NCBI GenBank assembly: GCA_902806565.1
Contig: CADCXA010000022.1
Span: 81,481-145,480 of the forward strand
Reading direction: 5' to 3'
Origin: Hypoxylon rubiginosum
Taxonomy: Eukaryota > Ascomycota > Sordariomycetes > Xylariales > Hypoxylaceae
Length of the DNA stretch: 64,000 nucleotides
Notes under the pieces: generated by a model
Told to the model about the DNA's origin: nothing
Database searches by the model: none
Seen by the model: only the letters and a program-made list of their open reading frames with translations
Shown: positions 14,721 through 54,686 of the stretch, piece after piece
Numbering within the stretch: position 1 is the stretch's first letter
Layout: every line of letters begins with the position of its first letter
Position numbers and translations under genes: made by a program

Positions 14721-16589
14721 CTATATGCGCCCCTCTTTAGGGCGACGGCGAATTCGGCATGGAAGCTTTCCCTTCGGTGGCATCGTGCCAAATCCAAAAT
14801 GACTCATGTTAACGCTGGGAATGGTATCCGGATTGAGATCGATTTCGTAAGCGGTGAGAAAAGCAGCAGTCGTTAACATAATCTCCCTTTTCGCAAAGTG
14901 ACGGCCCGGACACAAGCTCCGACCACCGCCGTACGGAATCCAGGTCCCTGCTAAGCCATCGGTAGAGAATGATAGGTCTTTATTGCCTGCTGCTCTTTTC
15001 GTCCTTGGATTTCGAAGCGGTCCGCTATTGGAATCATCCGGGTTGACTAGGAACCGGTGGGACCAGAATTTGTCGAGGGCGTGAGAGCTCAGATCTCCCC
15101 CCACTCCCCAAACTTCCTGGTTCATGGCTTCGGTGTGGCTAGAAACGGTCAGGACTTCACCCTTCTTGATACGCCACCCGCAGAACGAGAAGTCCCGCTG
15201 CGCTGCTTCGCGAACTATCAGAGCTGCAACACGAAGGCGTAGCGTCTCGGCATATACAGACTGCAATAGTGGGTCGCAGCATAGCTTCTCGATGTCAAAG
15301 GTAGCGTGCCCATTCTCATGCTCGCCGTTAGCTTCGGGTATCAAAAGTGCCGAGGAAACTCGTTGGTACACTTCCTCCTTCAGAGAAGTATCTCTTATGG
15401 TCTCGACGAGGAACCATATTGCAGCAGGAACTGAGTTGGAATTCGCCCTATGATATGATGTGTTAGCTTTGTACACGTCCACATTTCTCAACTTTACGGC
15501 TTGACGTACGCCCATAGGTTGGCGAAGTTCTCGGCAGCACGCGCTGTCTCGTCTAGAATGCCGCGTCTCGTGAGTAGAGCTTGCCTTTCCCGTATGAACC
15601 TGCTCCCATAATATGGTTCCCAATCAACATCTCCAAGTTCAGCGAGGTCGCAATTTTCCCTGGCATGCTTCTGCCACCGTTGGATGTTGTCCACCATTCT
15701 CTGCCGTGCCTTATACGCTTTTGGTATTAACCACCGCGGCATGTTCATGAATAGTAGACGTATATAATCATTGAACTCTAAGAAATCTTGAACAATATGA
15801 GGGTTTAGAGAAATCATGTAAGGGCCAAAGAAGGTGTATATCACGGACTCGATCACGTATTTCTGCACGAGGTCGCATAGATCAGGAATCTCCACCCAGT
15901 CATTCCCGATGTCCTGCTGCGATGCCCCGATCTTCTCTAGCAGAGAAATCTGAAATCTGCTCGCCAGTATTTCTAGCTGCGGACCTGAAAGTCCGGTCTG
16001 TACACCCCTGTGAATGGCCTGTTCGACCTCATCAGGGGCCCCATCAGGCGAGTATCTTGGCTTAAAGTGATGGGCCAAGTGCGCCGGACAGCCGAAGGCA
16101 TTCTGGATGATGGTGACGCCACGGCTGGTAGTGGAAAGATCCCGGGTGTTCTTGAAGAAGGCAGTGACTGCTTCCGGACCTGACACAACATAGCTGGAGA
16201 AGCCGGGGAGACTGATTCTCACCGGGACGCTTGCACCAGAGAATTTGCTAAAGGCTCGACAGGTATTAGAAGTTATGCACCGTCACTTTCGTGGTAGGGA
16301 GGATAGTTCACCTGGCTTTTGATAACAGAGCACTGCCATTCGTAATGAATTGGATTAGATGATCTATGAATGGTACATAGGAGGGAAGTGTAGGCGGCCG
16401 TTTAGAAGGGAGGTTGATACCACTAGTCTCATCTTGAGTTTGAGCATCATGGTCTTGCCAGGATGCGTACACACGACTCAAGATGAACGGACAAGCAACC
16501 AGGAGCAAGAGACACAACAGAGACACTCCATCCCATTGTAAAGTTGAAACACTGAGCATTCTCGCTATCGTGGAAGTCTCCATAGTCAT
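14721..16589 (-). CDS. Cytochrome P450 (P450-1), CYP7/CYP8-like, triterpenoid cluster
   Basis: Three exons on the minus strand, 16589-16312, 16247-15510 and 15447-14721, give about 580 residues. The start has an N-terminal hydrophobic anchor (LLCLLLLVACPFILS) for the ER membrane. The heme loop is PYGGGRSLCPGRHF with Cys near residue 518; the first Phe of the usual FxxGxxxCxG is Tyr. The ExxR of helix K is in YAETLRLR. The I-helix reads ANSNSVPAAIWFL, without the usual acid-Thr pair; this N-and-PAA pattern recalls the CYP7/CYP8 (oxysterol hydroxylase, prostacyclin synthase) group and related fungal P450s. It is divergently transcribed from the acyltransferase gene, sharing a 537-base promoter region, which suggests co-regulation. 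A role in oxidising the triterpene skeleton is inferred from context only. Confidence 0.9.
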
Positions 16590-17126: not shown

Positions 17127-18938
17127 ATGTCCTCAGCACTCATCGCCACTAGCATCTTCAGCCTTCAACTTGGTCTCACCGGGACCGTCTTAGGCTTCAC
17201 GCCCGCCAGCTCGATTTTGAGACCGGGATTTCTCCTACTGATCGCATTATGCCCGTACCTCCAATTCCCATACCTGGAAGACATTCGCTATGCTCCTCTG
17301 CGGGGTGCCTTAGGCGCCGCGTGCATTTATACGGTGATCATATATATCGACGCTGTTCTGCTCAACAAATTCACATTCGAAGCTGGCGGTCCGACATCTA
17401 CAGCGGGCGGATTGACTCCTGTTGAGTCGAGCGAGTTAAAAAGAGCCGCAAATGACTCTGGGACGCTAAGAGAAGCTCTGCATCGATTTCAGTTCGGTCT
17501 CAACATTAGCACTCAAGGAAGATTCCCGGCGACGAGGTGGCCGGTGAAGAACATTCCACCATTCTCTAGATCTGAACCTGGCCATATCCCCGGAAAGGGA
17601 AGCTTCCAAGTTCAAACCGCATTGAAGGTCATTATTGGGTTTACTTTGCTAGCGCTGCTCGGTTTCGCCCCAAATTCAGGAGACAATTCTACTGTATTTG
17701 CTTCGGAGAAGGTTGCACTCCTTACCAGGCTGGATAGCGTATCTAGGGAAGATATAATCACCCGAGCCGGAAGTGTTCTTGGATACTGGACAGTTCAGTA
17801 TATAATACATGTGGCGGTTCATGGGCTGTTGGCGGTAGTGGTCGTTACTCTGGGTGTCTCAGAGGTTAAGGCTTGGCCCCCTGTGTTCGGCTCGATTCAA
17901 GACGCATACTCCATACGTCGATTCTGGGGGTACGTAATAAATTCATTCAAAAATGAATTTATATCCCTTCCTTCGTAGTTGGAATGCTTGCTAACCTTTA
18001 CTGTTAGTAATTTCTATCACCAACTTATTCGCCGGGGTTGTAGTAGCATCGCGCATTTCACAACTTATACCTTTCTCGGTCTTAAGAAAGGGGGGTTTGT
18101 TGGTCGGTATCTATTCATACTCCTCGTATTCTCCGTTTCTGGAATATTCCACATGTTCTGCGATATCACTCAGGGGATTCCGTTGCGTGAGAGTGGGGCG
18201 ATGCATTTTTTCGTCATGCAGTCTTTCGGCATAATGTTTGAAGATGCTTTCCTATGGGTATTGCAGTACCTTTTTGGGGATAAGTTTCGCAAGGATCACT
18301 GGGCCTTGAAAAAGGCAGGATACCTATGGGTGACAGCCTGGCTGATCTGGTCCTCACCTATTTGGCTATACCCAACAATGCGACGCAACAAAGGAGAGCC
18401 GATAATTCCACTTCCAAGTTACATCCACACAGGCGTAACTCAGACGTGGTTCGGTATTTCTTCCTGGTATACCAATCAAGCAGGGAACTCTAATGTGACG
18501 ACGCTGGTATTTATACCAGTGTCGGCTCTGTTGGCCATCATATTAGTCCTTGCTGGCACTGCTGCAATATTCCAACCTATCACTCTCGCGCGAAATACTG
18601 GGATTTACTTGACGATACCTCACACAGAGGATGCGAAGCCTAAGTCGGACGACAACGATATAAATCCCCCCGTGCGTGACCAACAGGTAGTTGCCGCATG
18701 GGTGATTTTATTTGGCGTCCGGGAACTGGCACTAGGTCTCGCTCTTAGTACTTTATTGTACATGGGTGATTTAAGAGCTGCAGCGGTCGTGGTATTGGTG
18801 ATGTATGTGGTAGCCATAGGAGAAACCTATGTGTTCGCCAAGTATGGAGAAGGAGGCTCGATTACAAAGGTTGTGATACCAAGTCTTCTCCTACTTTGGG
18901 TGGCGCCATTTTATCTTCTTGGGCCCGGTCATAACTAG
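17127..18938 (+). CDS. MBOAT/wax-synthase-like O-acyltransferase of the triterpenoid cluster
   Basis: Two exons, 17127-17929 and 18008-18938, give 577 residues. The 78-nt intron has donor GTACGT and acceptor CTGTTAG. Multiple hydrophobic segments run through the protein, starting at SIFSLQLGLTGTVLGF. The RRFWG-NFYHQLIRR junction and the SGIFH segment (catalytic-type His near residue 316) match the wax-synthase domain of fungal membrane-bound O-acyltransferases. Members in terpenoid clusters transfer acetyl or longer acyl groups from CoA to hydroxyls. Enfumafungin carries an acetoxy group, so acetylation of the triterpene is the natural inference. At 577 residues it is longer than many family members; a hydrophilic stretch around residues 90-160 accounts for part of this. 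Confidence 0.85.
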
Positions 18939-19209: not shown

Positions 19210-21041
19210 TCATGACCCAACCACATTGCATCTTCGAACTCTAACAGTTGATGAGAATGGGGGCATCGCCGCATCTCCGAGGACTTTCATGCTAGACTGC
19301 GGATCCAATGGTTCGACGTCGTAATTGAGGACCAAGTACGCGAACATTGTCTTCATCATTAAGACGGCATACCAACGCCCGGGACTCGAAACGCGTTAGA
19401 ACTTTCGATAACTGAGAATTAGATCATCATAGATGGTAACAACTCACCAGGCATGACGGCCGTAGCCAAAACCTAAATAGGTGCTGCTTGGTTTTCCAGC
19501 GTCCAAGTCTTTACTCGGCACCGGATCTTCGCCCGGACCCCTTTCGCGTTCACGCCTGAGCTTGACGTACCGGTAGGGGTCATAGGTCTCTGGGTCGGGG
19601 TAGAACCTCGCATCCCAATGAACGCCCAGCACAGGAACTCCCAGCCACGCGCCTTGTGGTATGTGGGTGCCATCTGGAAGGTCTAAGCCACCTTTACGCA
19701 CTACCTCTTTGGTCAGACCCTTGATTAGCATCGGATGGCATCGCAAGCTCTCGCGGATGACACTGTCGGATATTTGAAGACTGTTGAAGGTATCCGCATT
19801 GTTCCAATCGTCTGGAGTCTTGATTGAGGTCTCGGCCTCTTGACGAAGAGTCTCGTAGACCTGCAATTCCTCAGGGGAATGCAAGATATCGAGCAGAACA
19901 TTCGAGCTCTGGCCGCCTAGAGAGTTGAAAGCGGCGAACCCCTTCTCGCGGTCAGCCCAGAAAAGACTAGCGGCATTTATCAACGTCTTAATTACCAGTA
20001 ACATCATCCACTCAGCGAGTTGTTTTGGCTCTGCAGCAGTTCGCGTAGACGTGCTTTTCGCAGATGTCCTCGCGCATTGGGATATAAAATCGTAGCTCTT
20101 ATTGTCAGACTGGCTTCGTAATACCTGCTGTTCCACAATAGGGAGAAGGATCTTCAGGGTTCTTCGCCTATAATACCAGAGCGGAACATTGAAAAAGGGC
20201 ACAAGTAGCCGCTTCAAGAATCCTGGCAGTATACCAATAATCATCGTCCCTACGCCCATTGCGAGAATGTAGCGGCTGTAAATAGTCAAGAACTCCTGGT
20301 TACGGCTTATCTGTTCGCCAAAGAAAACTCGGCACATAGCCTGCAAGATAATTTCTTGCATAGATTGGTATACATTGAGTGTTTTCCACTCCGTGGAGTC
20401 GGTGCCGAATACTTGATCAAAGCCTTGGCAGATTTCGTCGCACAATGGCTGTTGGATATCGCCGAGGTTTCGCGTAAGACTGTCACGAATAACCCGCTCC
20501 ATGAAGTACAGCGTAGAACTAAATTCCACGCCCATATGCTGGATTGATAGCCGTCAGTATTATATGATCAAAGACCGAATAGTCTGGAGAAAATTACGAG
20601 TTAGGAACATGAAATTTCGGCTTTCTCACCAAGTATTTTGACGCATGTCTCTCTTCGCGTATGGTCTTGCTCGACATGACAGTGTCTGACTGCTCCGCAA
20701 ACCATTTTATATGTTCCGGGGGTAACATTAGTTCCTTTTGGAAACTGGGCTCACACAATATGAACAATTTTCCGTTGGCCGAGTACTATCCCCAAACGTA
20801 TCAGTTCCTTGTTCAGCCACATATAGAGCTCACGTACTTTTCGATATCCTTCCATTAGCGTTGACATACCGTCCGTGAGTTGACGGAGCGAGGCACGGAC
20901 GACCCTAAACACCTCATTGCGCAGGCCGCTGATGGGAATATCATCTGGAAAAGCAGCAGAGTCCCGTAAGAAGAGTAGGATGAAAATATATACGAGGCCT
21001 AATAGCAGCAGTGAAGCAAGATATACGGTCCATGTCTCCAT
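19210..21041 (-). CDS. Cytochrome P450 (P450-2), triterpenoid cluster
   Basis: Four exons on the minus strand: 21041-20838, 20785-20630, 20538-19448 and 19384-19210. They give about 541 residues. The N-terminus has a membrane anchor (LASLLLLGLVYIFILLFL). Exon 2 restores the GYRKYSANGKLFILC and LPPEHIKWFAEQ segments typical of fungal class II P450s. Helix K shows the ExxR as RESLR; the heme loop is FGYGRHACPGRWYA. The heme-ligand Cys codon (residue 484) is split by the last intron (TG|T). The I-helix region reads NSLGGQSSNVLLD instead of AGxxT. The exon 2/3 junction (KYL-HMGVEF) is the least certain. It lies between the acyltransferase and cyclase genes and presumably oxidises the triterpene. 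Confidence 0.88.
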
Positions 21042-22205: not shown

Positions 22206-25200
22206 ATGGACAAGCCACGTTATTTACCACAGTCATTGGCTGCTTTAGAACGCGCCAGTCAGTTCTCCTTTGACTGCCAACAGCCCGATGGCCACTGGGT
22301 TGCCGAGGTCTCTGCAGACGTGACTTTCACCTCTGAATATGTCATGTTCAAGTATTCTGTTGGCCTTGACCTAAAGTCGGACGGTGGTGCCATACGCCGT
22401 TGGCTACTACAAGATCAAAAGGAAGATGGCTCATGGGGTCTTGCACCAGAGTTGGAAGGGAATGTCTCGACAACGACGGAAGCCTATTTGGCATTGAAGA
22501 TTCTCGGCGTCCCGTCCGATCATGAGGCCCTTCTCAGAGCAAAAAGCTTCATGATCAGAAATGGAGGAGTGGCTAAAGTCCGCTTCTTCACGCGTTTCTT
22601 CCTAGCCACGTTTGGATTATTCCCCTGGACAGCTATTCCGCAGCTGCCAGCGGAGTTGATCCTGATGCCGCCATCGTCTCCCCTCAATATCTACACGCTG
22701 TCTTCGTGGGCACGAAGTACTCTCATTCCCGTTCTATTAGTCCATCACCACCAGCCAGTCTATGCTCTGCCAAACGGCTTAAGTCATGACAACACCTTCC
22801 TGGACGAGCTATGGGTCGACCCTGGAAATAAAAACGTCCCGTTTGCGCCGCCTTTAACAGACCTATTCTGGCAGCGAGAATGGATCAAGCTCGGATTCAC
22901 GGCAATTGACAAGATCATCGCGCAAGCTGGTGGTCTACGGCACCAACCATTACGCCGAGTCGCCAGGAGGAAGTGTGTCGAGTGGCTACTGGAACACCAG
23001 GAGGGAACCGGGGAATGGGCCGGTTTCTTCCCTCCCATGCACGGGAGTATATGGGCATTGCTCCTCGAAGGCTTCCCGCTCAGCCACGAGGTGATCCGTT
23101 TGGGACTTGTGGGTCTCGAGGGTTTGGCAATTGAAGACGCACGCGGAAAGAGAATTGCCGCAACCGTATCACCTGTATGGGATACCGCACTGATGGCAGG
23201 CGCTCTATGTGAGGCGGGATATGGGCCAGACACTCGAATCGTCAAAGCCGCGGACTGGATCAAACGCAAGCAGATCTTTGGGCCCCAAGGCGACTGGCGC
23301 ATATATAGCTCGAATACGCAGGCGGGCGGCTGGAGCTTTGAGTATCATAATACCTGGTACCCGGACGTGGACGACACCGCGGTGGTCATCATGACACTAG
23401 TGAGACAGGACCCGGGTCTTATCACTTCAGAGAGCATTTCTAGCTCCGTGGAATGGATCCTCGGGATGCAAAATCACGACGGCGGATGGGCAGCTTTTGA
23501 CACCAATAACGACAAGCTTTGGCTACACAAGATTCCGTTCAGCGACATGGATAGTCTATGCGATCCAAGTTCGGCTGATATCACTGGCCGTATCTTGGAG
23601 TGCTTTGGGTTCTTGCTTGATCAGCGAAAGTGTCGCTTAGATCGGCGGCTGGAAAAGAAAGTCACAGCAGCTTCATGGCGAGGAATATCATATCTGATCA
23701 AGGAGCAAGAGGCCTCAGGGGCTTGGTGGGGACGCTGGGGTAACAATTACATCTACGGCACTAGCAACGTCCTCAGGGGTATGGTCCATTTCGCGCGAAG
23801 GGATCCAAAAGTTCGGCACAGCGTAGTTCGTGCGCTGCGATGGTTTGAATCTATACAAAACCCAGATGGAGGCTGGGGAGAGACGCTGAAGTCGTATGAC
23901 TTCCCTGACCTTGCCGGGAGAGGGATTAGCACCGCTGCGCAGACGGCATGGGCTCTTGAAGCATTTCTTCCATACCGTGCTGTGTCGACCAAGTGCATTG
24001 AGGATGGAGTAAAATGGCTGGTAGATAATCAAACGATTGAGTCGGAACACGGGGCGTCCTGGTCAACGGACATATACACTGGAACTGGTTTCCCTAAGGT
24101 GCTCTATCTAGGCTATCCCTACTATCACCACGCGTTCCCAATCAAGGCGTTAAGCCAATACATACACTCAACCCAAAGAATCGAATTAGTGCCTATCAGC
24201 CTCCCTCCGCATATTCTGGACGTTCTATGTCGGCCGGACGTCGTCATGATTGTCAGCGGCAGCCGCGGGGACATCTCACCATTCCTTCGCATTGGCATCG
24301 AGCTGCAAAAATCTTACGGGTGCCGAATACGCATTGCGAGCCACATGTCCCACCAAGGAGCCGTCGAAGAACATGGCTTTGAACTCTACCCGATAGCCGG
24401 AAGCCCAAAGGAGTTCGCGAGAATCTTTACGGAGAAGCCGGATATCTTAAAATCTTTCATCAGGGGCGATTTCCACGCTCTTTTGGCATTGTTCAAGAGG
24501 ATGCTCGAGGACTGCTTGCGATCTACAATCGGTGACAGTAGATTCACCTTCGATACGAAAGCCACGTCTAGTCGCCCCTTTATTGCAGATATCGTTCTAT
24601 CTAATCCGCCTACTTTAGCTCACAGCTATGCTGCCGAGGCTCTCCAAGTTCCGCTACTCCTTGTCTCTATCCAACCTACTTTACCCACGATAGCTTTCCC
24701 GCATCCCCTGACCATGTCAAAACCTAGTCTACCACAGGCGAGTCGGTGGAACTACCTCTCATATTGGGGGTTGGAATTGGCGTACGTACCTACCGAATCT
24801 TTCGAGAAGTGACAGTTGAGCATCGATGCTAACACACTTGAGCAGAAACCAGTTGGCCTTCGGATACTTCTTAAGAACCCGCGCAGCTAAGATCTTCAAG
24901 GGAAGCTCTAGACGGCTGACCAGTAGTTCCAAGAAAGGGAAAATCCCATACGTGTGTTTATGGTCTTCCCTTGTCCTACCTCGCCCAACAGATTGGGATG
25001 AGACGACAACAGTTGCGGGCTACGCATTTTCTAACGCAGGAGACGACTATTCGCCGCCACAGTCCCTACAATCATTTCTTACATCTGACCAGCCAGTGCT
25101 GGCTATTTCATTTGGCTCAATGGGTATCGCTGATCCCGAGAAGTTCATGTCAGTACTATCGCAAGCAGTGGAGGGTGTCGGCGCGAAGGCCGTCATCTGC

Positions 25201-26043
25201 GGCTCTTGGCCAACAGCCGCAATGAAGATGCACATCCTAGATCACATGTATTTCGTGGAAGACATACCGCACGACTGGCTTTTACGGCACGTCCGAGGTT
25301 TCATCCATCACGGAGGAGCGGGGCACACGGCCGTAGGATTGCGCTTCGGCGTCCCGATGCTCCTAGTCCCATTCTGCCTCGATCAAAATTTCTGGGCTGC
25401 GAGAATTCACCAGCTCGGACTTGGGCCAACCCCGATCCCGTATCGCGACGTGACGATGCGGGTGCTCAAGGAATCCCTGGAGGACCTGCTTTCCGAGAAA
25501 TATCGTGAACGATGCAGGCAGAAGGCATCAAAGCTGTCACTTGACACGGATGGAGCTAAAGTCGCCGCAGACTTGGCTGCCAGAGAACTATCGTCACCAG
25601 GGACGGCTGAACTATGCAGTATAGTCCCTCGACTCGAGGCACACTGGCGACATACTGAGTCTGGGCTTGCGCTCTCGGGTGCTGTTGCTGCTGCCTTGGT
25701 ATCCCAAGAGCTCTTGGATTGGTCAGATATGGATTTGCGGAGAGGGGACGACCAGGCAGATCAGAGCAGCAGTGCGCTCTTATTGTTTCGAATTCTTATG
25801 CTGCTCGTGGATGCACTTTACAGTGTATTTCAGGTCATATGTGGCCTGGGCACAGAGTCCGAGCCTCCAGGAGATAATCCAATCCGTCAAGCGAGGATCA
25901 ACCAAAGTCTATCTGACCTAGAACTAATCCGAAGCCATGGAGTGGAATTGGAGGTGTTGGCGAGGAGCTGGCAAGCAGCGGTGACAGGGAGGTTTATTGG
26001 ACAGGTGGCAAAGACATACCGTGATCAAGAAGGCGCAGCATAA
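22206..26043 (+). CDS. Bifunctional triterpene cyclase-glycosyltransferase (enfumafungin-synthase/EfuA-like)
   Basis: Two exons, 22206-24781 and 24846-26043, encode 1257 residues; the 64-nt intron (GTACGT...TTGAGCAG) sits inside the glycosyltransferase part. Residues 1 to about 660 are a squalene-hopene-type cyclase with QW repeats (Q25-W31 QQPDGHW, QKEDGSW, NHDGGW, NPDGGW) and the protonating DVDDTA motif (D387, D389, D390). Residues about 678-1257 are a GT1 sterol-type UDP-glycosyltransferase. They begin with an IVSGSRGDISPF loop (682-693) and contain the donor-site HHGGAGHT (1013-1020) plus PFCLDQNFW. This architecture is that of enfumafungin synthase and the fuscoatroside cyclase. The expected reaction is cyclisation of (oxido)squalene to a polycyclic triterpene alcohol, followed by glycosylation of its 3-hydroxyl. 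Product skeleton and sugar cannot be read from the sequence. Confidence 0.95.
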
Positions 26044-26919: not shown

Positions 26920-27650
26920 ATGTTCACCCAACTCGCCTTCGCCTCTCTCCTTGCCGCTATCCCGCTAGCGCATGCGACCCCTAACGTCACGGCCAAGGTT
27001 CTTCCTTCGGAAGATTGCTCGTCTTACCCCGGATATGATGCTACAACCAACACTGCTGGTCCTTGGACTATCCAGCTAGTCAACAGCGACAATGTGGCAA
27101 TTGAAGGGTTTAGCGACACTTCTGTTTACTCAATCTCATTCAATCCCAGCACCGATCGCAAGCCGAGTCTGCGATGGGGCTCTGTAAGTCGCGTTTCGCT
27201 GTCGAATCGCGTGCCAAGTCTAATCAAGCAATGCAGATCACGTTCCCCACGCGCAATGACATTGCGAAGAACCCGCTGAAGTGTGAAGCTGGTGTCCTCA
27301 AGGGTTGGGTGCCGACTGACCTGACGGCCGCCGGTGCGCCTATGAGCTACGTGTGGACCCCCTTGGTGCTTTCGGAGTACCCGTACGACGCCGCTCTGAT
27401 GTGGAAGATCGACGGCGAGGCGCCCCAGATCTTCGAGCACTACATCGGCGACGTCAAGCAGGATGGCGTGTTCCTGGGCAGCTACAACACGTCCACTTCC
27501 TGGGGCCTTAAGTACTATCCCGCAAGTTCCGGCTCGAGCGGCCAGGACTACTACTACAGTCGTCTGCTAGGACCTAACAGCGCGGATCCCACGACTGGTG
27601 CGCCGCTGTCCGCAAACGAGACTACGGCGTTTATCAAGATTACAGAATGA
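26920..27650 (+). CDS. Small secreted protein, uncharacterised
   Basis: Two exons, 26920-27183 and 27237-27650, give 225 residues. The 53-nt intron runs from GTAAGT to ATGCAG. The N-terminus MFTQLAFASLLAAIPLAHA is a textbook signal peptide. The mature protein is about 205 residues, rich in Thr, Ser, Pro and Tyr, with N-glycosylation sequons (NVT, NTS, NET). Cysteines are few (for example SEDCSSYPG and LKCEAG), so it is not a cysteine-rich effector. I do not recognise the family. It lies just after the fusion gene on the same strand, but a cluster role is not indicated. Confidence 0.78.
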
Positions 27651-27978: not shown

Positions 27979-29389
27979 TTACCCCTCCCAAGTTGCCTCA
28001 AGGATAGCTAGACTAGAGCCCGGTGGTTGCTGCATTCCTTTGAAGACGAATCTTTGATCTGCTTGTTCAAACAGAGCCTTCCATTCGTCAAGGTCACGTT
28101 CCTTAGCATTGCCAATCTCAAGCATCGTGACGTCCATAGCTCTACCATACTCATTAGTGAATCAGGTTCAATTCTAACCGCTGTCGCAGACACCTACCTT
28201 AACTTTCGCTCAACGCTGTTAGGAAGGACACCAGGTGGTGGCATCACAAAGTCCATGATGAGAATCCTGGAGCCCTTCTTCAGAGCCGGCGCTAGGGCCC
28301 TGAGAATCTTGACACAGTACTTGTCCGGCCAGTTATGGAATACCCAGCGATAGAGATAGACCTCGGCGTTCTTGATGGGTTGCTCCTCGAAGAAATCATG
28401 AGCCATGAACTTGACGTCTACGTCGGGTTGTTCTCGGGAACTTGCTACCACCTCGGGTAAATCCTGTACGACCAAATGGAGGTTAGGATATTTTCGAGCC
28501 AGAGCAAATGCCGCATCACCATGGGATCCACCTAGATCGATGACAGTACCGTGCCCAAGTGAACTCCAGGAGTAATTGTCGGTCAGATGATGTAAGGAAT
28601 ACCCAGGTCCTGTCGTAAAGAAGCTCATAGCACCACCAAACCGCCGCGCCCGCTCAGGATCTTCGTAAAGATCGATGTAAAAAGGTTTAGAAGTCCCGTT
28701 AGCCAGAGAGAAGCCCTAGGTATCATCAGCAGATAGCCATCATGATTCGAGATGTTTTTACATACAGTCTGGCTAGGCTCTTCCGCAAGAGGCCATTTCG
28801 CCAACGCATCCACAGCTTTTTCGGCTGACGGCCACATATCGTCTACATTTGCCCCCACCCAATCGGCGACATTCGAATTCTCTGAAATCTGTTTAGAGGC
28901 TGCGGAGTGGGCCATAACCCCTGGACGAGGCTCCCTGAAGACGCGGCACGCAATACCCATGCGTAAGATACGACGAAGTGCGGCGCAGTCAACACCGACA
29001 GAGGCTGCTAGGTCTTCATAGCTGATCTCCCCATCCACGGGCACTTTCTTAGCAATATCAAATTTCGAGATGAACTTCAAATACACCAGCTGATTGTGCT
29101 ATTTCCATATCAGCTACTATGACGTGCTGTATCGTTAGCGGACAGCGCATACCGTATGGTTGAAGATTAACTCCCTCGGTCCCTGGAGAAGATCGTTAAG
29201 CTCTTGGCTTGCCTCGAGGGCCACGCCACGGGACTTTTCAATATCAGGCGGTAGGTTAAGATCGCTCGGGCCATCGGCTTCGAATGACGGGTACGGCAAG
29301 CCTTTCTCAGAGAGATAGTTATCAATCCGGTTCGTATGAGTTGCTACGGTAGCCGCTAGTTCGGCAATTTTGCTTTGGGGTGATGCCAT
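27979..29389 (-). CDS. SAM-dependent O-methyltransferase (caffeate/sterigmatocystin OMT class)
   Basis: Four exons on the minus strand: 29389-29153, 29098-28766, 28715-28198 and 28141-27979, giving 416 residues. Introns are 50-56 nt with standard signals. The N-terminal half is the dimerisation/winged-helix part, including QLVYLKFISKFDIAKKVP. The C-terminal half is the Rossmann methyltransferase, with SAM motif I VIDLGGSHGDAAFALA (about 248-263), VQDLPEVV, and FHNWPD carrying the presumed catalytic His317. ILIMDFVMPPPG follows. The start is ATG 29389; the frame extends to a TTG at 29401. It is divergent from an FAD-linked oxidase gene. In fungi this class methylates small-molecule hydroxyls. 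Whether it acts on the triterpenoid is unknown, since enfumafungin itself needs no O-methylation that I recall. Confidence 0.9.
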
Positions 29390-30027: not shown

Positions 30028-31568
30028 ATGTCAGTCTCCGAGGCGATCGAGGCGGTCAAGAAGACCTCGGGGGGTTTGGTTATTCTCCGCGGAAGCGAGC
30101 AATATGATAAAATCACCGGCTCATACTTCTCGGAGCTAGAACGCGAGTTAAAGCCTGAATGCTTCCTCGTCCCGAACTCGGCGTCGCAAGTCGCGGATAT
30201 AGTAAAGGCTATAAAGCCTTTTGCGCTCCTCTCAAAGGTCGCGATTTGCGGTTCCGGTCAACAGGCGACACCCGCTGTTGCGAATGTCCGCGATAGTCTC
30301 ACAATCCATCTGCGTAATCTCCGAGGAGTTAAGATTGACATGGAGAGAAAATCGCCTCAGTTGCGGCTGGAGAACAGATGGGGAATGTGTACGAAGCCGT
30401 GAATGCTGCAGGGCTCGGTGTTGTGGGTAATCGACACTCCAGTGGCGGAATAGGAGGAGACGCTCCTCAAGGCTGGTTCTACTGTCTCTCTTCGATTTTC
30501 CCCCGTTGTAACTCTTTTTAGGGGGGTTGTCATACTTCTCTTATGCTCGGGGCTTCGTTTGCGACAACGTAGTCAATTACGAAATTGTCCTTTCCAGCGG
30601 AGAGATCGTGAATGCCAATGCCGAATCCAATAGCGACTTATGGATTGCTCTCAAGGGTGGAGGCAATAACTTCGGCATCGTCACTCGCTTCGACCTCAGC
30701 GTCTTCGAGCAAGGCCAGCTATGGGGCGGCAAACTCTTCTACTTCCAACCTAGCTTCAACGGACAGATACAAGCTCTCGTCGACTACCTGCGCCGCCCGA
30801 AAGCTGACGTCGATATTCATATTTGTGTTAGCCTCGGATATGCCGCCGCCCTTGGTGATATTATGTGCATGAACGACGTCTTCTGCACACGACCGGAAAA
30901 GCCGAAAGCACTTGAACCATTTGTGGATATCCAACCTCAGATCGACCAGATGAAGACATTACGTGTTGATAGTCTAAAGGGCTTCACTGACGAAGCATTT
31001 TCCGGTGCGCTTTCAAACAGGTAGGTGCTTCAATACCTGGTAGGAGTGGCCTTTGCTAGCTCTACAGATGTTAATAACACATAGGGTGGTCAAAATGTCC
31101 ACAACAGTCAAGGCGGATACAAGAATCCTCGAGTATTCCGTAGAGACGTATCGTGCGTCCCTTGAAAAGCTGAGGGGGGTGGGAAACCTTCTTTTCTCAA
31201 TGACGTTCGAACCTTTGGCTGTGTCCATGATGGAGCAGTCAATTGCTCGGGGTGGGAACTCTCTAGGGCTTAAGCCGTCAAATGGTCCACTTGTTGTGGT
31301 GCTATTCTACACCTCCTGGGACAATTCCAATGACGATGGAGTGGTGTACAATGTCAACAAAGTGGCTCTCGAGAACATTGACAACGAAGCACAAAGTAAG
31401 AACTTGTCTACGAACTATCGATGCTTGAACTACGCATCCACGCACCAAAATCCAATTGGTTCATACGGGTCTGAGAGTATGATGCAGCTACAAGCTGTCA
31501 GCTCGAAGTACGACCCTGAAGGATTCTTCCAAACTGCAGGTACAGGACCATTCAAGCTATCGACATAA
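30028..31568 (+). pseudogene. FAD-linked oxidase (BBE-type, cytosolic) with apparent frameshift
   Basis: From the ATG at 30028, the product resembles PCMH-type FAD oxidases: PNSASQVADIVKAI, then CGSGQQATPAVANV, VCDNVVNYEIVLSSGEIVNA, ALKGGGNNFGIVTRFDL and a C-terminal SSKYDPEGFFQT. Three oddities are visible. First, an AAAA run at about 30346-30350 shifts the frame before the AAGEQMGNVYEAVNAAGLG segment; one base seems missing. Second, the intron at about 30471-30520 needs a GC donor (CAAG|GCTGGT) to join GGDAPQ to GGLSYFSYARG. Third, the family's flavin-attaching His is replaced by Gln (SGQQ where RSGGH is usual). A normal intron lies at 31021-31084. It has no signal peptide. It is either a recent pseudogene or a gene with an assembly error. 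Confidence 0.7.
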
Positions 31569-36503: not shown

Positions 36504-36640
36504 GGGTGGACCATAAGGCCCAAAACCGCCAACCCCGCCAATTCCAAAAGGTCCGTATTTTCATTCTTAAATACTGTGGTTTTAGCACTGTATTTTCCCT
36601 ATAATTATAAGGCTGAGGCCTTGTAATATAGGTCCTAGAG
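36504..36640 (+). repeat. Left terminal inverted repeat
   Basis: Matches the reverse complement of 39979-40118 with scattered C-to-T type differences and small gaps. It ends about 60 bases from the rhodopsin-like gene's ATG and so probably lies in its promoter. Confidence 0.8.
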
Positions 36641-39600
36641 ATTTATATATTTATTTTTTAGATATTATAATATTAATATTACTTATATTTTATAATTTAT
36701 AATATATATATTTTATAAAATATTTAAATTTTTAAAATTATTTATTATATTTATAATATATTATAAAATATATATTATTATAATTAAATAACAAGGTTAT
36801 AAAATAACAAAACTATAAAATAATAAAGCTATAAAATAAAAAATTATTATTTTAATAATATTGTTTTTTTAATAATAAGTTTTTATAAAATTTAAATTTA
36901 TATTATTTTTATTATTTTTTTAATATTATTTATTTTTTTAATTAACTAAGATATTTATTACTTTTTTAAATATTAAAAATGGTTTTATTTAAATTAAAAT
37001 TTATAAAATCTTTTTTTTTTATAATATAATTATTTATTTATATTACTTTAAATTATATAGTTAATAAGTTTTTTTATAATTAAATTTATTAATTAAATTT
37101 TTTATAATTTAAATATAAATATATTAATTATAATATAAATTATTTTAGTTATTTATATATTTTTTAATTTATATTAGTTATTAAATTAATAATCTTATTA
37201 TTTTTTAAAATATTATTAATATTAAAGAAATTTTTATTAAATAAGTTTTTTTTTTTATATTTATTAATAGTGGCGATAACTTATTATTACTTTAATATAT
37301 AGTTTATAATATTATAAATAAATTTACCACTTTAATTAGTTTAGTTATTATTATAGTTATTATTATAATTTTTTTTATAAGTTTTTTTTATTATTACGGC
37401 TTTTTTTTATATTTTATATATTAATATTAAGGTTTTAACGGTAATTTTAATTTTACTGTAAATTATTATAATAACTAACTTATAAACTAGCTTTAATTTT
37501 TATATTAATATAAATTTATTTTACTGGTTTTTAATTAAAATTATAAGTATTTTTATTAAAAGATTTATTTATTTATTTTTATTAAAATAAATATTATTTA
37601 ATAAAGTTTTTAAATAACTAGGGATTTTATTAGTATTTTTTTATTATAAATATTATTTTAAATATAATTAATTTATTAAATAATCTCTTATAAAAGTTAA
37701 ATATAACTAATAATTTTTAAATTAATAAATCTGGTTTATTTTTAATTAAATTATATTTTAAATATTATTATTAATAAATATTATTTTTTTTAAATAGTGT
37801 TATATTTAATTTATTTTTAATTAGTTTAATATTTTTAAAAATCTTATATTAATAGTTTAATTTATATTAAATATATATATAATAAAAATATTTAAATATT
37901 ATAAATAAAAATAAATGTGTTTATATAAATAAATATTAAAAAGTTTTATAATAAGTTTTATTAAGTTTTTTTATTATAATTAAAAAATAATATAATAATA
38001 TATTTTTAAGTTATTAATAACTTATTTAATTGTTATATTATTTAAAGTTATTATAGGTAATTTATTAAATATAAATAGTTTTTATATTAATTATTATTTT
38101 TTTAATTATTTTATTAATTATTAATAAATTAAAGTAATTATTTAATATATAACTTTTAAATAATTAATTATTAAACTTAGTTAATAATATAGTTTTTATA
38201 TTAAAATTAAGGTATTTTTTAATATAATAATTAATTTATTTTTTTTAATAAAATAAGTATATTTTTTAAAAGTATTTTATAGTTAGTAATTACTTTTTAT
38301 TAAATTTATTAATTAATTATATTTAAATAATTTTAAATTTTATTTTATTATATATATATATTATATATTTTTAATATAATAATATATTTTTATAAAAATA
38401 AGAAATTTCTTTAAAAAAATTACTTAAATTAAAAATATTATTATATTTATTAAATTAATTAAGGTTTTTAAAAAACGTATTATTTTTTATTTATAATTTA
38501 TTAATAAAAGTGGTAGATATTTATTTTATAGTTTTAGTTTTTATTTTAATTAATAAAAAAGAAATTAAGTTATTTATAATTTATTTATAAATAAGTTATA
38601 ATATTATATTTTTATTTATATAAAAAATATAAAGCTAGAATTATATAAATAAAAACTACGTTTTAATTATTTTTTAAAATTACTTATTAAAATTTAATAT
38701 TATTATTAATAATATTAATATTTTAATAAACGTTTTTAATTTATTTAAAAATTTAAATAATTAATTAAATTAGTTTTAATTTTATACGATATTATATTAA
38801 ATATTATATTAAATATAAAGCCGGTTAAAAAGCGATTAATAACATTAAAAAATAATATATAATATTAATTAATTTTATAAATATTATTATAACTTATTAT
38901 ATATAAATGTTATTTTTATATTTTTTTATAATATAAATAAATTTAAATAATTATTTTTATTTTATTTAAGTTATTTATTATTTATTTAATAATATATTTA
39001 TATTTTTTTATATATAAATAATAAATAATTATATTTATATAAAACCTTATTATTTATATTTATAAAAATAAAGCTAGGTGTTATAAATATTTTTTAGTTA
39101 AATAAATATACCGGGATAATTATTTTATAATATTAAAAAGATTTATATTAATATTATAATTATAAATTATAAAAAAAACTTAATTTATTATATAACTTAA
39201 TTATTTTTTATTATTTTATAATAAGTGTAAATTATAAGATTAATTATAAGCTTATAATTATAAAAAAAAAATAAACTGGTATTTTGTTTTTTTATAAATT
39301 AAAAAGTTTATTTATAGTTATTATTATTTAATATAAATAAACTGTTTTTTTAAAAGTAATTAATTTTTTATAAAAAAATAACACGGTTTTTAACTTTTAA
39401 AAACTTTATATAAAAATTATAATTATAAATAATTTTATATTATATTAAAATCTTATTAATATAATTAAAACTAACTATTTTATTAATATTAAAACTATTT
39501 ATTTAAATAAAATCTAATAAATATTAATAGATTTTTTCTTATAATTTTATAAAAAAAAAACCGTTAAAACCGTTTTTTAATAAGTTTAATATTATTATTT

Positions 39601-39978
39601 TAATTATAGTTTTATTTAAATTAAATAATAATTTATAAAATGTTAAATTTAATTTAAAAAACTAATAAATTAAGTTTAATTAAAGAATTTTTTTAATATA
39701 TAAATTATAATTATAAAGTTTAATAATTTTTAATTTTTATATTTAAATAAATAATTATTTAATATATAATTAATTAAGTTATTAAATTTTATTTAATTAA
39801 TAAAAAGTTAATTTTCTACTGGTTTTTATTTTATAAAAACTTATTATTAAAAAAATAATATTATTAAAATAATAATTCTTATAAAATAATAAAATTATAT
39901 ATAATAAGTGATAAAATTATAAAATTAATTATAAAATTATATATAATATTAAAATTATAATATATAAAAAATAAAAAT

Positions 39979-40118: not shown

Positions 40119-40573
40119 CCTGACCCCTTGGAGCTGTTACAAGGCTTTTATCTATATTTTAACTATATACTGTTAATCCTCGAATAAGACCACCAAGCCA
40201 TTACGCCTCCAATGTGCATGGTGCTGACTTCTGTGTAACATATGGCTTCGTACAGTGGTTGATTCGGATGTGAAAAGATACAGAAATGCTTCATGCATGT
40301 GGGGTTGGACAATTGCACCTCTAATATATATGTCGGCGAATCACATACAGAAGTCATCAATTAATCCTACGCCACACGGACAAAGCATGAGCGGGCGCTG
40401 GGCTATGTAGGTACCTAGGTACCTAAGTACATGAAGGTATTTATAAGCCTGGCCCTTATCAATCGAGGCTCTTTGCTCGATCTTCTTTTACGGTGCGCGA
40501 TCTTGTTCCCTCTCTTATTGCAAACCTTTCTGTTACTCGCCAATTCAAGAGCTTACAATTTACTCGCATAAAC
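40119..40573. other. Upstream region of flavoprotein oxidase 1
   Basis: The segment lies between the transposon end and the oxidase start. It includes the palindrome TAGGTACCTAGGTACCTA (40409-40426) and a TATTTATAAG sequence at 40438-40447, about 130 bases before the ATG, a candidate TATA element. No coding frame is supported. Confidence 0.35.
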
Positions 40574-42491
40574 ATGTTTAGGGGAGTACTGACTAAGTGC
40601 CAGGTGCAGATGGTGGCCTTGTTTTCAATTATCGTCCTCCTCGGGGCGATATGGAAGGCAACGTCGAAAACCTCGCTGTCAACACAGAAACAGCTTGAAT
40701 GCCGATGCTTCCCAGGGGATGACTGCTGGCCCTCATCCGAGGAATGGAGCCGCTTGAACGAAACCGTCCGGGGTAAACTAATTGCCACAGTTCCACTTGC
40801 CAGTCCCTGCCACGATGGCTTCCCTGGCGTAAATTACGATCCGGTCAAATGTGCGGACATACAAGCAAATTGGGCTCGGCCCTCACTTCATTACAAGACA
40901 ACGCATTCTCCGATGGCGTCCTTTTTCGCCAACCAAAGTTGCGATCCATTCACACCCCGAGATGCTCAGTGCGTCGTTGATGCCTACGTCGCTTACGCTG
41001 TCAACGCCTCAAGCGCGTCAGACTTCCGCGACACCATAGCTTTCGCAAGGAAACACAACGTTCGGCTAGTAATTCGAAATACAGGACACGATTATATGGG
41101 AAAGTCGACCGGTGCCGGTGCGCTAGCTATATGGACGCATCATATAAAAGATATTACTATTTTCGACTACGTTTCTCCCGGCCACACCTCCCCTGGCTAT
41201 ACAGGGAAAGCTATGAAAATAGGCGCCGGTGTCCAAGCATATGAAGCTCAAGCAGTGGCAAGAGCAAGCAGCCTGCTCGTTGTAGAGGGGGATTGTCCAT
41301 CTGTGGGGATTGCAGGGGGTTACACGCAGGGTGGTGGGACAAGTCCTTTGGGGTCTAGGTTTGGACTTGCTGCTGACCAGGTGCTCGAGTGGGATGTAGT
41401 GACTGGAAAAGGGGAACTTCTAACTGCCACCCCTAGTCAGAATCCGGATCTTTACTGGGCTCTATCAGGCGGCGGTGGCGGCACTTACGGTGTTGTTCTC
41501 TCCATGACAGTCAAATTGCATCAAGATCAGCCAACGGCTGGCGCCACTCTTTCCTTTACTGAATCCTCCAACAGATATTGGGATATGATACGGGTATTCC
41601 TGATGAACTTACCATCTATCATAGATTCCGGTGCTAGTGTTTACTTCCAGTTTCTACCAGGGAATATATTTTCCCTACCACAATCGTACCTCTTAGGAGG
41701 AGCTGCGCAGGACTTTGACCGGCTCTTCCAACCTACTCTTCAGGCCCTCAACCAGACCGGAATACCCTACGGTCAGTTTACCATTCTATATCCACCTGGA
41801 TTCATAGTTTATAATCTCCTATTCATCCTTGATCATCGGATCCTTACCAACCTGCATCTAACAGAATGGAGTTCCCATAACTTTCCGGGTTTTCAGGATG
41901 CTTTCCATACACTGAACCCCGATATGAACATTTCAGACGTCAATCTGGGCGGACGCCTCATACCTCGCACTCTTGTATCTGATAACGACTCGACCACTTC
42001 TCTTGTCGCTGCTATCAAGTTGATCCTCTCTCACGGTGGAGTTATAGCTGCTATTTCCATGGATTTCCACCGCCTGCCAACATATCCGAATTCTGTTCAC
42101 CCGGTTTGGCGTGAGACAGTATTTCTGGCGTTCCTCGGCACGTATGTACCCTAACAACACCAACTCCCTATCACATGAATTAAATTTAACTTCTTTTAAC
42201 AGGATGTATAATCAATACAACATGACGGAGAATATCAGAGATCAACAGACGATTACCAACGTTTTCGATCCAGCTCTGGAGGTATTAACACCTAGAGGAG
42301 CTGCGTATCTCAACGAGGGTGACATCAACCAGCCTAACTGGCAGGACGTCTTTTACGGTCCAAACTATCTCAGGTTAGCTGCTATCAAGAAGGTGTACGA
42401 CCCGCATGGTATCTTTTGGGGTCCTACTGCAGTGGGAAGCGAGGCGTGGGAGGTTTCTACAGGCGGAAGACTTTGCAAGACCCGTGATTGA
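40574..42491 (+). CDS. Secreted bicovalent FAD-linked oxidase (BBE-like), copy 1
   Basis: Two exons, 40574-42141 and 42203-42491, give 618 residues; the 61-nt intron runs GTATGT...TTTTAACAG. An N-terminal hydrophobic segment (VQMVALFSIIVLLGAIW) is a signal peptide or anchor. Bicovalent flavin attachment is indicated by His172 in IRNTGHDYMGKSTG and Cys241 in GDCPSVGIAGGY. ALSGGGGGTYGVV and a C-terminal YDPHGIFWGPTAVGSEAW complete the BBE signature. Such enzymes oxidise alcohols, sugars or alkaloid-type substrates and release hydrogen peroxide. The upstream open frame to 40493 begins with GTG, so ATG 40574 was chosen. The position after TQGGG is Thr; the paralogue next door has His. Substrate unknown. 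Confidence 0.92.
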
Positions 42492-43084
42492 AGTACTTAC
42501 TATAGATCAGTCTCACACTGTATACTATCAATAGAACACATTCTATCTGGTTGTAGGATTCCGCGTTCGGCAGGCTGTGACAGTGATATGCATAAAGAGC
42601 CTTTCGAAGTGAGACTTCATCTAAATGTCTAAACACCAGCAAATGAAGTGACGGTTCCGCTTAGTATGATTCGTAAGCTGCATGCATCGGCAATGGGGCA
42701 AATTAATGCTGCTCCGGTGGGCCTGACTAGTAGTTCTGGATCGGCCTTCCTTATGCACGAGTTAGGCCGAGATATGTGCAAAGTCATATTTGTTACACGA
42801 TTCTTGTCTCGGTCAATATTTGAGGGCGTCGCCGTAACGAGACCAACCACAGCCACCTTGAGTCCTGCAGGTTATATGGGAGCCATGTAACAGTTACAGC
42901 GAAGCCACCTCCTATCGTCGATGAATGCGGGTGATCCAACAAACTCGTACTAGTGCAGGCCAATACAGCAAAGGTTAAAGCACCTACATCGTGTTTGCTA
43001 GATAACCACAGTTGTTGCGAATACTATTCCAACCTCTACTATCTAGATACCAATTCGCCAATCACAAAGAAATATTGCAATACA
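42492..43084. other. Intergenic region between the two flavoprotein oxidases
   Basis: Contains overlapping frames on both strands around 42630-42890 with no family resemblance. The paralogue's frame extends upstream to a GTG at 42953, but the signal peptide fits ATG 43085. Confidence 0.4.
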
Positions 43085-44788
43085 ATGCGTTTCTACGACG
43101 CCCTCTGGGCACTCATTCTGAATTTGTTCGTGGATTTGACCGCCAGCCGTTGCCTTTTAGCACCTAGTGATCCTGAATGGCCAAGTACGGCAATATGGTC
43201 TGGTTTGAACGAGACTGTCGGCGGCAAACTACTAGCGACTATCCCCATAGCTGCCTCTTGCCATGACCGCTTTGCACAATATACATCAAACTTGTCTACA
43301 TACAACGGCAGCGTTTGTGATGCTCTACGAAGTACCTGGTTTTATCCAGAAACGCACTTGTCTTCGCCTTCCTCACCAATGGCCTATTCATTTACTAATA
43401 ATAGTTGCAATCCGTGGGTAGAACGGGATGTCCCATGTACGATAGGTTATGATGTAGCATATACCATCAACGCTACACAGATTAGCGATCTCCGGCACGG
43501 ACTTGAATTCGCCAAGGATCATAAAATACGGCTGATCATTCGCAATACTGGTCACGACTATCTCGGCAAGTCGACCGGAGCGCACGCCCTTGGTTTGTGG
43601 ACCCATCAGCTTAAGCTCCTCGAGGTGGGCACGTATAACACAACAAATTATACAGGGCCGGCCATACGTATCGGAGCAGGCGTACTGGCTATTGAAGCAT
43701 ACAGATTTGCAAGTTCCCACGGCCTCATGGTCGTTGGTGGTAATTGTCCAACCGTTGGCATTGCCGGTGGCTACAGTCAGGGGGGCGGGCACGGGCCCTT
43801 GATCTCTAAGTACGGCATGGGTGCTGACCAAGTACTTGAATGGGATGTCCTGACAGCAGACGGCAACATCGTTACTGCGAACGCAACAAGTCATTCTGAT
43901 TTATTTTGGGCGCTAAGAGGGGGCGGTGGCAGTACATTCGGCGTGGTGGTGTCAATGACGGTGAAAGCTTTCCCGGATATTTACGTGTCCACGGCCTCTC
44001 TGACGGCTGTCGACAACGGCACCAACACTGATATTATCTACGACTTCATGAAATCCTGGCTACGTGCCCTACCACAGATTGTCGATGCCGGCGTCCACGC
44101 CTTATGGTTTATCGGGCCAAGTGGTTTCTCCCTGGTGCCCGCATTCGCGCCTGGTTTGCATAAAGACGAACTTGATGCTCTGCTCCAAGTGCCCATCGAA
44201 GAAATGAAAAAAGCTGGCCTGCACTACCAGTATTCCTCGAATGAGAGTGCCACATTTTTGTCAGCTTATGAATCTTTGGCGACGGGCTGTAACGTATCAG
44301 ATTACAATATAGGAGGAAGACTGATTCCTAGAAGTCTTGTCCTGAACCAGACCGACAGGCTCGTAGAAGCTATTCGTTACATTGGTTCCGAAGCCATTTT
44401 GTCGGGCGTCAGTTTCAACGCCAGAGCTGGCGTTATCTCCCCCGATGAAGTTGCTGTGAATCCCTACTTCCGCAAGGCATTATTCAACGCATTTATCGGA
44501 GTGCCTATTAACTACACAAGCTGGACAGCAAATCAGGCAACTTTAGACGCTATAACCACAGACCTCTTGCCAGCATTGGAGGTTTTGACACCTCATGGAG
44601 GAGTGTATTTAAACGAAGCCGACTCAAGACAGCCTGATTTTCAGTCGACTTTTTATGGAGACCACTACGACAGGCTCTTGCAAATAAAACGCCTCTATGA
44701 CCCGGACAGTATTTTCTACGCGAGGACAGCGGTAGGAAGCGAGGCCTGGGAACAGCAGCTTGATGGGAGGCTATGTAGCTTGGAATAG
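43085..44788 (+). CDS. Secreted bicovalent FAD-linked oxidase (BBE-like), copy 2
   Basis: An intronless gene of 567 residues. MRFYDALWALILNLFVDLTA is a signal peptide. His157 (IRNTGHDYLGKSTG) and Cys221 (GGNCPTVGIAGGY) predict bicovalent FAD. The SQGGGHGPL loop, LRGGGGSTFGVVVSMTVK and YDPDSIFYARTAVGSEAWE follow. Multiple N-glycosylation sequons (NET, NLS, NGS, NAT, NTT) fit a secreted enzyme. It is paralogous to the upstream gene throughout, but it lacks the intron that interrupts copy 1 after FLGT, where it reads FIGVPINYTSW. Both sit on a gene island between two AT-rich blocks. Confidence 0.92.
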   Translation: MRFYDALWALILNLFVDLTASRCLLAPSDPEWPSTAIWSGLNETVGGKLLATIPIAASCHDRFAQYTSNLSTYNGSVCDALRSTWFYPETHLSSPSSPMAYSFTNNSCNPWVERDVPCTIGYDVAYTINATQISDLRHGLEFAKDHKIRLIIRNTGHDYLGKSTGAHALGLWTHQLKLLEVGTYNTTNYTGPAIRIGAGVLAIEAYRFASSHGLMVVGGNCPTVGIAGGYSQGGGHGPLISKYGMGADQVLEWDVLTADGNIVTANATSHSDLFWALRGGGGSTFGVVVSMTVKAFPDIYVSTASLTAVDNGTNTDIIYDFMKSWLRALPQIVDAGVHALWFIGPSGFSLVPAFAPGLHKDELDALLQVPIEEMKKAGLHYQYSSNESATFLSAYESLATGCNVSDYNIGGRLIPRSLVLNQTDRLVEAIRYIGSEAILSGVSFNARAGVISPDEVAVNPYFRKALFNAFIGVPINYTSWTANQATLDAITTDLLPALEVLTPHGGVYLNEADSRQPDFQSTFYGDHYDRLLQIKRLYDPDSIFYARTAVGSEAWEQQLDGRLCSLE

Positions 44789-54682: not shown

Positions 54683-54686
54683 TATA

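What the first reader, a model, noticed from the sequence alone, without database searches (positions are those of the whole stretch)
22206..26043. Triterpene cyclase fused to a sterol-type glycosyltransferase
One open frame (one intron) joins a squalene-hopene-type cyclase with DVDDTA and QW repeats to a GT1 glycosyltransferase with HHGGAGHT. This architecture is known from very few characterised enzymes (enfumafungin synthase EfuA, the fuscoatroside cyclase). A new member may make a different skeleton or carry a different sugar. I see the domains directly; the product is inferred.
Basis: partly seen in the sequence, partly recalled or inferred. Interest (0 to 1): 0.92.

Follow-up and report, generated by a model that had tools for sequence, protein, structure and literature searches.

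The report
Known fungal cyclase–glycosyltransferase fusion gene
The gene is real and joins a triterpene-making enzyme to a sugar-adding enzyme, but this very gene cluster, in the wood fungus Hypoxylon rubiginosum, was already described in 2021 as a likely maker of an enfumafungin-like antifungal glycoside.

Summary
Observation confirmed. Window 22206-26043 encodes one 1257-residue protein in two exons around a 64-nt intron (24782-24845): a squalene-hopene-type cyclase fused to a sterol-type GT1 glycosyltransferase. The genome (48,274,338 bp, 70 contigs) matches Hypoxylon rubiginosum MUCL 52887 (48,274,337 bp, 70 contigs in PMC8403587). That 2021 paper already reports the SHC-glycosyltransferase fusion there, with two P450s, an acetyltransferase and an O-methyltransferase, as a fernane-glycoside cluster. 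So the locus is already known. The architecture is not rare: 84 of 117 cyclase rows fall in one fusion group, and cyclase and transferase trees agree. Active-site residues follow that group and the DQ motif is kept, so a different skeleton or sugar is not supported. Best reading: a fernenol/isomotiol-type cyclase plus 3-O-glucosyltransferase in a fuscoatroside-like pathway, perhaps with an extra O-methyl group. Leads from this work: an acetyltransferase fused in frame to DUF4267; the one glucan synthase found has Gly-Ala where yeast has Tyr638-Phe639; in relatives the transferase's catalytic half was lost at least twice while its C-terminal tail stayed.

The parts
22206..24781 (+). TC-GT fusion, exon 1: squalene-hopene-type cyclase (residues 1-~658) plus acceptor-side N-lobe of the glycosyltransferase (~663-859)
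24782..24845 (+). intron, 64 nt, position shared with many relatives
24846..26043 (+). TC-GT fusion, exon 2: donor-binding half with HHGGAGHT...DQ, and C-terminal tail (residues ~1113-1257)
19210..21041 (-). cytochrome P450 B, 4 exons, 541 aa, divergent to the fusion gene
   Evidence: gene model; Pfam p450 4e-28; 31% over 279 aa to the N-terminal part of Chrysothrix P0080, a gene model that joins this part to a TC-GT relative
14721..16589 (-). cytochrome P450 A, 3 exons, 580 aa
   Evidence: gene model; Pfam p450 8.2e-15
17127..18938 (+). MBOAT_2 acyltransferase fused in frame to a DUF4267 domain, 2 exons, 577 aa; putative 2-O-acetyltransferase
28190..29389 (-). O-methyltransferase (Methyltransf_2); start read by eye, end of last exon not settled
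   Evidence: Pfam 4e-21; frames; sequence
30028..31568 (+). FAD_binding_4/BBE-type oxidoreductase-like gene (weak matches, piece by piece); reading frame changes near 30340 without an obvious intron
40427..42491 (+). FAD_binding_4/BBE oxidoreductase, in a gene island between two AT-rich blocks; possibly part of the cluster
42935..44788 (+). second FAD_binding_4/BBE oxidoreductase in the same island

Best explanation
It is an intact EfuA/FsoA-type bifunctional enzyme, the core of the published H. rubiginosum fernane-type cluster. The cyclase half protonates 2,3-oxidosqualene through its DVDD motif and makes a 3-hydroxylated fernane-type pentacycle (fernenol, isomotiol or motiol; which one is not resolved). 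The product leaves, one P450 hydroxylates C2, the MBOAT acetyltransferase acetylates it, the fused transferase half then puts glucose on the 3-OH, and the second P450 oxidises or opens ring E, as worked out for fuscoatroside in PMC12667498. No EfuI-like dioxygenase was found, so the enfumafungin hemiacetal is not expected; the O-methyltransferase may add a methyl group. Shown here: sequence, domains, place in the tree, cluster content. Inferred from FsoA/EfuA: substrate, product, sugar, order of steps.
For: Domains and motifs. The DVDD motif and W169, W312, F365, W489 and F601 of A. acidocaldarius SHC are matched. The window carries F274/T320/V632/L633, as 44-45 of 45 rows of its own group do and 24-32 of 37 of the second fusion group, against mostly I/C/H/F in 33 stand-alone fungal cyclases. 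The fusion group splits off with SH-aLRT 100, window among Hypoxylon species. Cyclase and transferase trees show the same three groups. HHGG...DQ is kept in the window and in 20 of 21 full-length relatives. Cluster: two P450s, MBOAT acetyltransferase, O-methyltransferase. Of 9 relatives of the acetyltransferase, 3 (Aspergillus ellipticus, Chaetomidium leptoderma, Xylariaceae FL1651) lie on contigs of exactly the length that carries the TC-GT hit of the same organism. Pathway order from PMC12667498 (abstract and sections 1, 2.2, 2.3).
Against: No transcript, enzyme assay or metabolite. EfuA gave a little fernenol and no glucoside in A. oryzae, and EfmA gave no product (PMC12667498, section 2.2), so an intact sequence does not guarantee activity. 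The Hypoxylon transferase half sits on a long stem (0.67 against 0.22 for the cyclase), so its acceptor may have shifted. The two P450s are not matched to FsoD or FsoE.
Confidence: 0.72

Rival explanations
1. The cyclase half works but the transferase half is inactive or acts on another acceptor, and fusion serves mainly folding or localisation of the cyclase.
For: EfuA does not glucosylate in A. oryzae. In the second fusion group 8 rows (six Xylaria, P0086, P0100) have lost 264-271 of 271 residues of the donor half yet keep 81-130 of 130 tail residues. In all 10 intact pairs that I chose for comparison the N-lobe and the donor half are less alike than the cyclase.
Against: In the window all transferase motifs looked for are intact; the sister gene in H. 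texense also keeps them. For FsoA the transferase is active, and fusion raises its activity.
Confidence: 0.15
2. The fused enzyme makes a new skeleton (not fernane-type) or attaches another sugar.
For: An O-methyltransferase and FAD oxidoreductases sit nearby, and PMC8403587 says that such genes are not shared with efu; product specificity cannot be read from sequence alone.
Against: At the 27 active-site positions compared the window carries the commonest residue of the fusion rows; only residue 306 departs from columns 95% or more conserved in the other fusion rows. DQ motif kept.
Confidence: 0.1
3. Two adjacent genes misread as one.
For: No RNA evidence.
Against: Exon 1 runs from the cyclase through about the first 200 residues of the transferase in one open frame without an intron at the domain border. 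Transferase-type sequence follows the cyclase in 81 of the 83 other rows of the fusion group.
Confidence: 0.02

Closest known systems
H. rubiginosum MUCL 52887 fernane-type cluster (Kuhnert et al. 2021, PMC8403587, passages)
   Same: Same genome by contig number and by size within 1 bp; SHC fused to GT, two P450s, acetyltransferase, O-methyltransferase, FAD oxidoreductases
   Different: No contradiction found; the fusion of the acetyltransferase with DUF4267 is not mentioned in the passages read, and the FAD monooxygenase named there was not separately identified here. Fig. 17 was not seen
FsoA / fuscoatroside cluster of Humicola fuscoatra (PMC12667498)
   Same: TC-GT fusion, P450s and acetyltransferase; the set FsoA/D/E/F is matched in kind
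   Different: The window cluster has an O-methyltransferase, and no glucose oxidase like FsoC was named by the scans; FsoA sequence not available, so identity unknown
EfuA / enfumafungin cluster of Hormonema carpetanum (PMC12667498, PMC9476466)
   Same: TC-GT fusion, P450s, acetyltransferase
   Different: No EfuI-like Fe(II)/2-oxoglutarate oxygenase among the ORFs scanned
Stand-alone fungal SHC-type cyclases (33 rows)
   Same: SHC type, DXDD motif
   Different: No GT part; other residues at several active-site positions. PolA of polytolypin (named in PMC11026467, passages) was not placed in the tree
Yeast sterol 3-beta-glucosyltransferase (PDB 5gl5, 5xvm)
   Same: GT1 type; GSRGD, HHGG and DQ motifs align
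   Different: The matched chains carry no cyclase; the window has an extra C-terminal tail of about 145 residues

Membership tests
Enfumafungin-type TC-GT fusion enzyme | SHC-type cyclase domain with DXDD and QW repeats | tested here: met
Enfumafungin-type TC-GT fusion enzyme | Sterol-type GT1 in the same open frame, C-terminal to the cyclase | tested here: met
Enfumafungin-type TC-GT fusion enzyme | Cyclase falls with other fused cyclases, apart from stand-alone fungal ones | tested here: met
   84 rows against 33, SH-aLRT 100, midpoint root; 22 fused rows against 4 stand-alone rows, 100/100
Enfumafungin-type TC-GT fusion enzyme | Groups with EfuA and FsoA themselves | not tested
   no hit with these names among the 120 listed of 1202
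Enfumafungin-type TC-GT fusion enzyme | Makes a 3-hydroxy fernane and glucosylates it | not testable with these tools
   needs expression and NMR
Fuscoatroside-type gene cluster | TC-GT, two P450s and an acetyltransferase together | tested here: met
Enfumafungin gene cluster | EfuI-like Fe(II)/2-oxoglutarate oxygenase | tested here: not met
   no such Pfam hit in 31 of 36 window ORFs of 130 aa or more; short exons and genes outside the window are not covered
Enfumafungin-type producer | Self-protection of glucan synthase | tested here: inconclusive
   one FKS gene found, not in the window; hot spot 1 altered, but no relatives without the cluster could be compared

The most novel reading that the evidence does not exclude
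The C-terminal module of the fused transferase is a structural partner of the cyclase that evolution keeps apart from glucosylation: when the catalytic donor half is lost, the tail stays. In H. rubiginosum the full pathway makes an O-methylated fuscoatroside-like glucan synthase inhibitor, tolerated because its glucan synthase lacks both lipid-contacting aromatic residues of hot spot 1 (Gly-Ala for yeast Tyr638-Phe639).
Probability: 0.18. Interest if true: 0.6.

Novelty: already known. Interest (0 to 1): 0.3.

Why it matters
Enfumafungin-type glycosides gave the approved antifungal ibrexafungerp (PMC12667498). The locus itself is published, so the discovery claim falls. Three side results bear on open questions: why cyclase and transferase are fused although they act at non-consecutive steps (asked in PMC12667498), how producers survive their own glucan synthase inhibitor (raised in PMC9476466), and what extra modification H. 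rubiginosum adds.

Tried and rejected
Rejected: two separate genes (open frame crosses the domain border); a rare architecture; a second FKS copy as resistance gene in the cluster (one FKS match in the genome, on contig C62). A second SHC-type cyclase in the genome: the two other hits lie together on C41; the larger piece scores better with oxidosqualene cyclase models than with hopene cyclase, all below the models' cut-offs because it is a fragment; the smaller piece was not scanned. My motif scan of those loci for DxTAE or DxDD(T/S)A printed nothing, so it is called an oxidosqualene cyclase on model scores alone.

Led nowhere: alignment with EfuA/FsoA (not available); Kuhnert et al. 2018, PMC6237087 (not held); papers on hot spot 1 in Sordariomycetes (no paper held all four terms); tandem repeats in 36-64 kb (none at score 300 or more); the secreted protein at 26.9-27.6 kb (no Pfam or NCBIfam match). 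Fernane plus Hypoxylon gave 2 papers, both read in passages.

Dropped rows: 4 of 120 hits (P0069, P0076, P0077, P0079) did not cover enough of the cyclase for the tree. The search scored 7991 candidates and listed 120 of 1202 hits, so counts describe the nearest relatives only. The 10 intact pairs were picked by me from 22 intact proteins.

Full report
What is there. A 64-nt intron at 24782-24845 joins two open frames into one protein of 1257 residues. Residues 1 to about 658 are a squalene-hopene-type cyclase; residues about 681 to 1112 match a sterol-type GT1 glycosyltransferase. Against A. acidocaldarius SHC the DVDD motif and the aromatic residues W169, W312, F365, W489 and F601 are matched, while I261, Y420, H451 and F605 are F, F, R and L (that these positions matter is recalled, not looked up). 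Against yeast sterol glucosyltransferase the GSRGD, HHGG and DQ motifs align (that DQ goes with glucose is recalled).

Which organism, and is it new. The genome holding the window has 48,274,338 bases in 70 contigs. Table 1 of PMC8403587 gives H. rubiginosum MUCL 52887 as 48,274,337 bp in 70 contigs. I take them as the same assembly; the tools gave no name, so this rests on the two numbers. The same paper says (passages) that H. rubiginosum has an SHC protein with a glycosyltransferase domain, with two P450s and an acetyltransferase shared with the efu cluster, plus an O-methyltransferase and an FAD monooxygenase, and two nearby FAD oxidoreductases, and that its product very likely belongs to the fernane glycosides. 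The window shows two P450s, an MBOAT acetyltransferase, an O-methyltransferase and two FAD_binding_4/BBE genes, with a third such gene matched only weakly, piece by piece. I did not see Fig. 17 itself. The finding is therefore a rediscovery.

How rare is the architecture. The spliced protein found 1202 proteins at E <= 0.001, of which 120 were listed. In a tree of 117 cyclase rows (116 of those 120 plus the window) one branch with SH-aLRT 100 parts 84 rows from 33 (quick method, midpoint root). Of the 83 rows beside the window on its side, 81 match the transferase part, many of them only up to the intron, and none of the 33 others does. The 84 include Hypoxylon, Paramyrothecium, Diaporthe, Apiospora, Chaetomidium, Xylaria, Aspergillus ellipticus, Rhynchosporium and several lichen fungi (source names). 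More careful trees of the cyclase (26 rows) and of the transferase (27 rows) give the same three groups, with the window beside H. texense in both; the window's group has 99/98 support in the first and 91/91, unstarred, in the second. Of 51 related ORFs that stop before residue 900, 37 stop at window position 857-859, the intron position here. All this fits a single old fusion with joint descent; the trees used the simpler LG+G4 model, and some inner forks are open.

Skeleton and sugar. At the 27 active-site positions compared, the window carries the commonest residue of the fusion rows. Among them, F274, T320, V632 and L633 are found in 44-45 of 45 rows of the window's group and in 24-32 of 37 rows of the second fusion group, against mostly I, C, H and F in the 33 stand-alone cyclases. 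Only residue 306 (G for R, shared with the other five Hypoxylon-type rows) departs from columns that are at least 95% conserved in the other fusion rows. The HHGG...DQ motif is present in the window and in 20 of 21 full-length relatives; the P0031 model lacks that stretch. So I see no sign of a new skeleton or a new sugar, though fernenol, isomotiol and motiol cannot be told apart this way.

Mechanism. PMC12667498 (abstract and sections 1, 2.2 and 2.3) shows for FsoA that the cyclase makes isomotiol, that a P450 (FsoD) hydroxylates C2, that an acetyltransferase (FsoF) acetylates the 2-OH, that only then the GT half glucosylates the 3-OH, and that a second P450 (FsoE) cleaves ring E. The window offers a candidate for each: fusion, P450 A and B, and the MBOAT acetyltransferase. 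Genes of the same kinds do not prove the same product. An EfuI-like dioxygenase, which makes the enfumafungin hemiacetal, was not seen in the 31 of 36 window ORFs of 130 aa or more that were scanned. The acetyltransferase has 9 relatives in the protein search. Three of them, in A. ellipticus, C. leptoderma and Xylariaceae FL1651, lie on contigs of exactly the length that carries the TC-GT hit of the same organism (173,002, 66,740 and 1,425,909 bases). That supports a lasting link between the acetyltransferase and the fusion enzyme; the distance between the genes was not seen.

Side result 1, the acetyltransferase. Its second exon runs without a stop from MBOAT_2 into DUF4267, giving 577 aa. 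The five relatives P0178-P0182 have 409-418 aa and end before the stretch that matches DUF4267 here. P0177, nearest in identity, matches only the first exon and cannot tell. I did not search the literature for this fusion.

Side result 2, the target. The genome search found one glucan synthase gene (FKS), on contig C62. At hot spot 1 it reads ESYGALTLSLRDP where S. cerevisiae FKS1 has ESYYFLVLSLRDP, so Tyr638 and Phe639 are Gly and Ala. [quoted passage not shown] F639Y has been linked to natural echinocandin resistance in Fusarium solani (PMC4824402, passages). Enfumafungins show only limited cross-resistance with echinocandins (PMC9476466, passages), which weakens the link. The change could be self-protection or simply a trait of the order; I could not compare relatives. 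Self-resistance of the enfumafungin producer was raised as a question, with EfuJ as a guess (PMC9476466, passages).

Side result 3, the tail. In the second fusion group of the tree, six Xylaria proteins and the metagenomic pair P0086/P0100 have 0-7 of 271 residues of the donor half but 81-130 of 130 tail residues; in all eight the GSRGD motif is changed too. They sit in two places in the tree, each with intact neighbours (P0020; P0050), so at least two losses. At cyclase identity of 82-84%, tail identity is 60-65% in three GT-less pairs and 45-59% in two intact pairs; at 72-77% it is 42-57% in nine GT-less pairs and 35-53% in three intact pairs, so the ranges overlap. The N-lobe goes the other way in the second range (32-45% against 48-60%). 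The pairs share members and are not independent, and the tail of P0072 was compared over only 74-85 residues. A model of the GT-less P0070 has cyclase blocks mostly above 80, an N-lobe remnant at about 35-69 and two tail stretches at about 81-88 and 77-84, with a poor stretch between them (35-60). Its alignment held 40 rows. The Xylaria proteins are annotators' gene models, so a skipped pseudogene part is possible there; P0086 and P0100 appear to be unspliced ORFs, which is my inference from how other proteins of that source end at the intron. The tail may thus serve the cyclase rather than the transfer of sugar; this is a lead, not a result.

Verdict. Interest is low to moderate, carried mostly by the side results.

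Noticed in passing
window 17127-18938 (+): MBOAT_2 acetyltransferase fused in frame to a DUF4267 domain; five relatives of 409-418 aa lack it.
   Followed up: partly
L004 (G000:C62:828931-831393): The one FKS glucan synthase found in the genome has Gly-Ala in place of yeast Tyr638-Phe639 at hot spot 1.
   Followed up: partly
related proteins P0070-P0073, P0083, P0084, P0086, P0100: Cyclase-transferase fusions that lost the transferase's donor half but keep its C-terminal tail, in two places of the tree.
   Followed up: partly
window 36600-40000 and 46000-64000: Two blocks with 8.6% and 7.7% G+C; TpA/ApT 1.18 and 1.20, (CpA+TpG)/(ApC+GpT) 0.27 and 0.20, as after RIP (the reading of these indices is recalled); the second runs to the end of the contig. 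Two FAD/BBE oxidoreductase genes form an island between them.
   Followed up: partly
window 30028-31568 (+): FAD_binding_4/BBE-like gene whose frame changes near 30340 with no obvious intron; may be decaying.
   Followed up: no
window 26920-27650 (+): Small secreted-looking protein of 225 aa (model joined by eye) between the fusion gene and the O-methyltransferase, no Pfam or NCBIfam match.
   Followed up: partly
protein P0003 against window 22206-24781: A protein filed under Hypoxylon rubiginosum has a cyclase only 89% identical to this one, less than H. texense (91%), so the name may cover two species.
   Followed up: no
protein P0120 (Aspergillus coremiiformis): A cyclase listed with a PF02458 transferase domain in a 1141-aa model, outside the GT fusion group; another possible cyclase fusion.
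   Followed up: no
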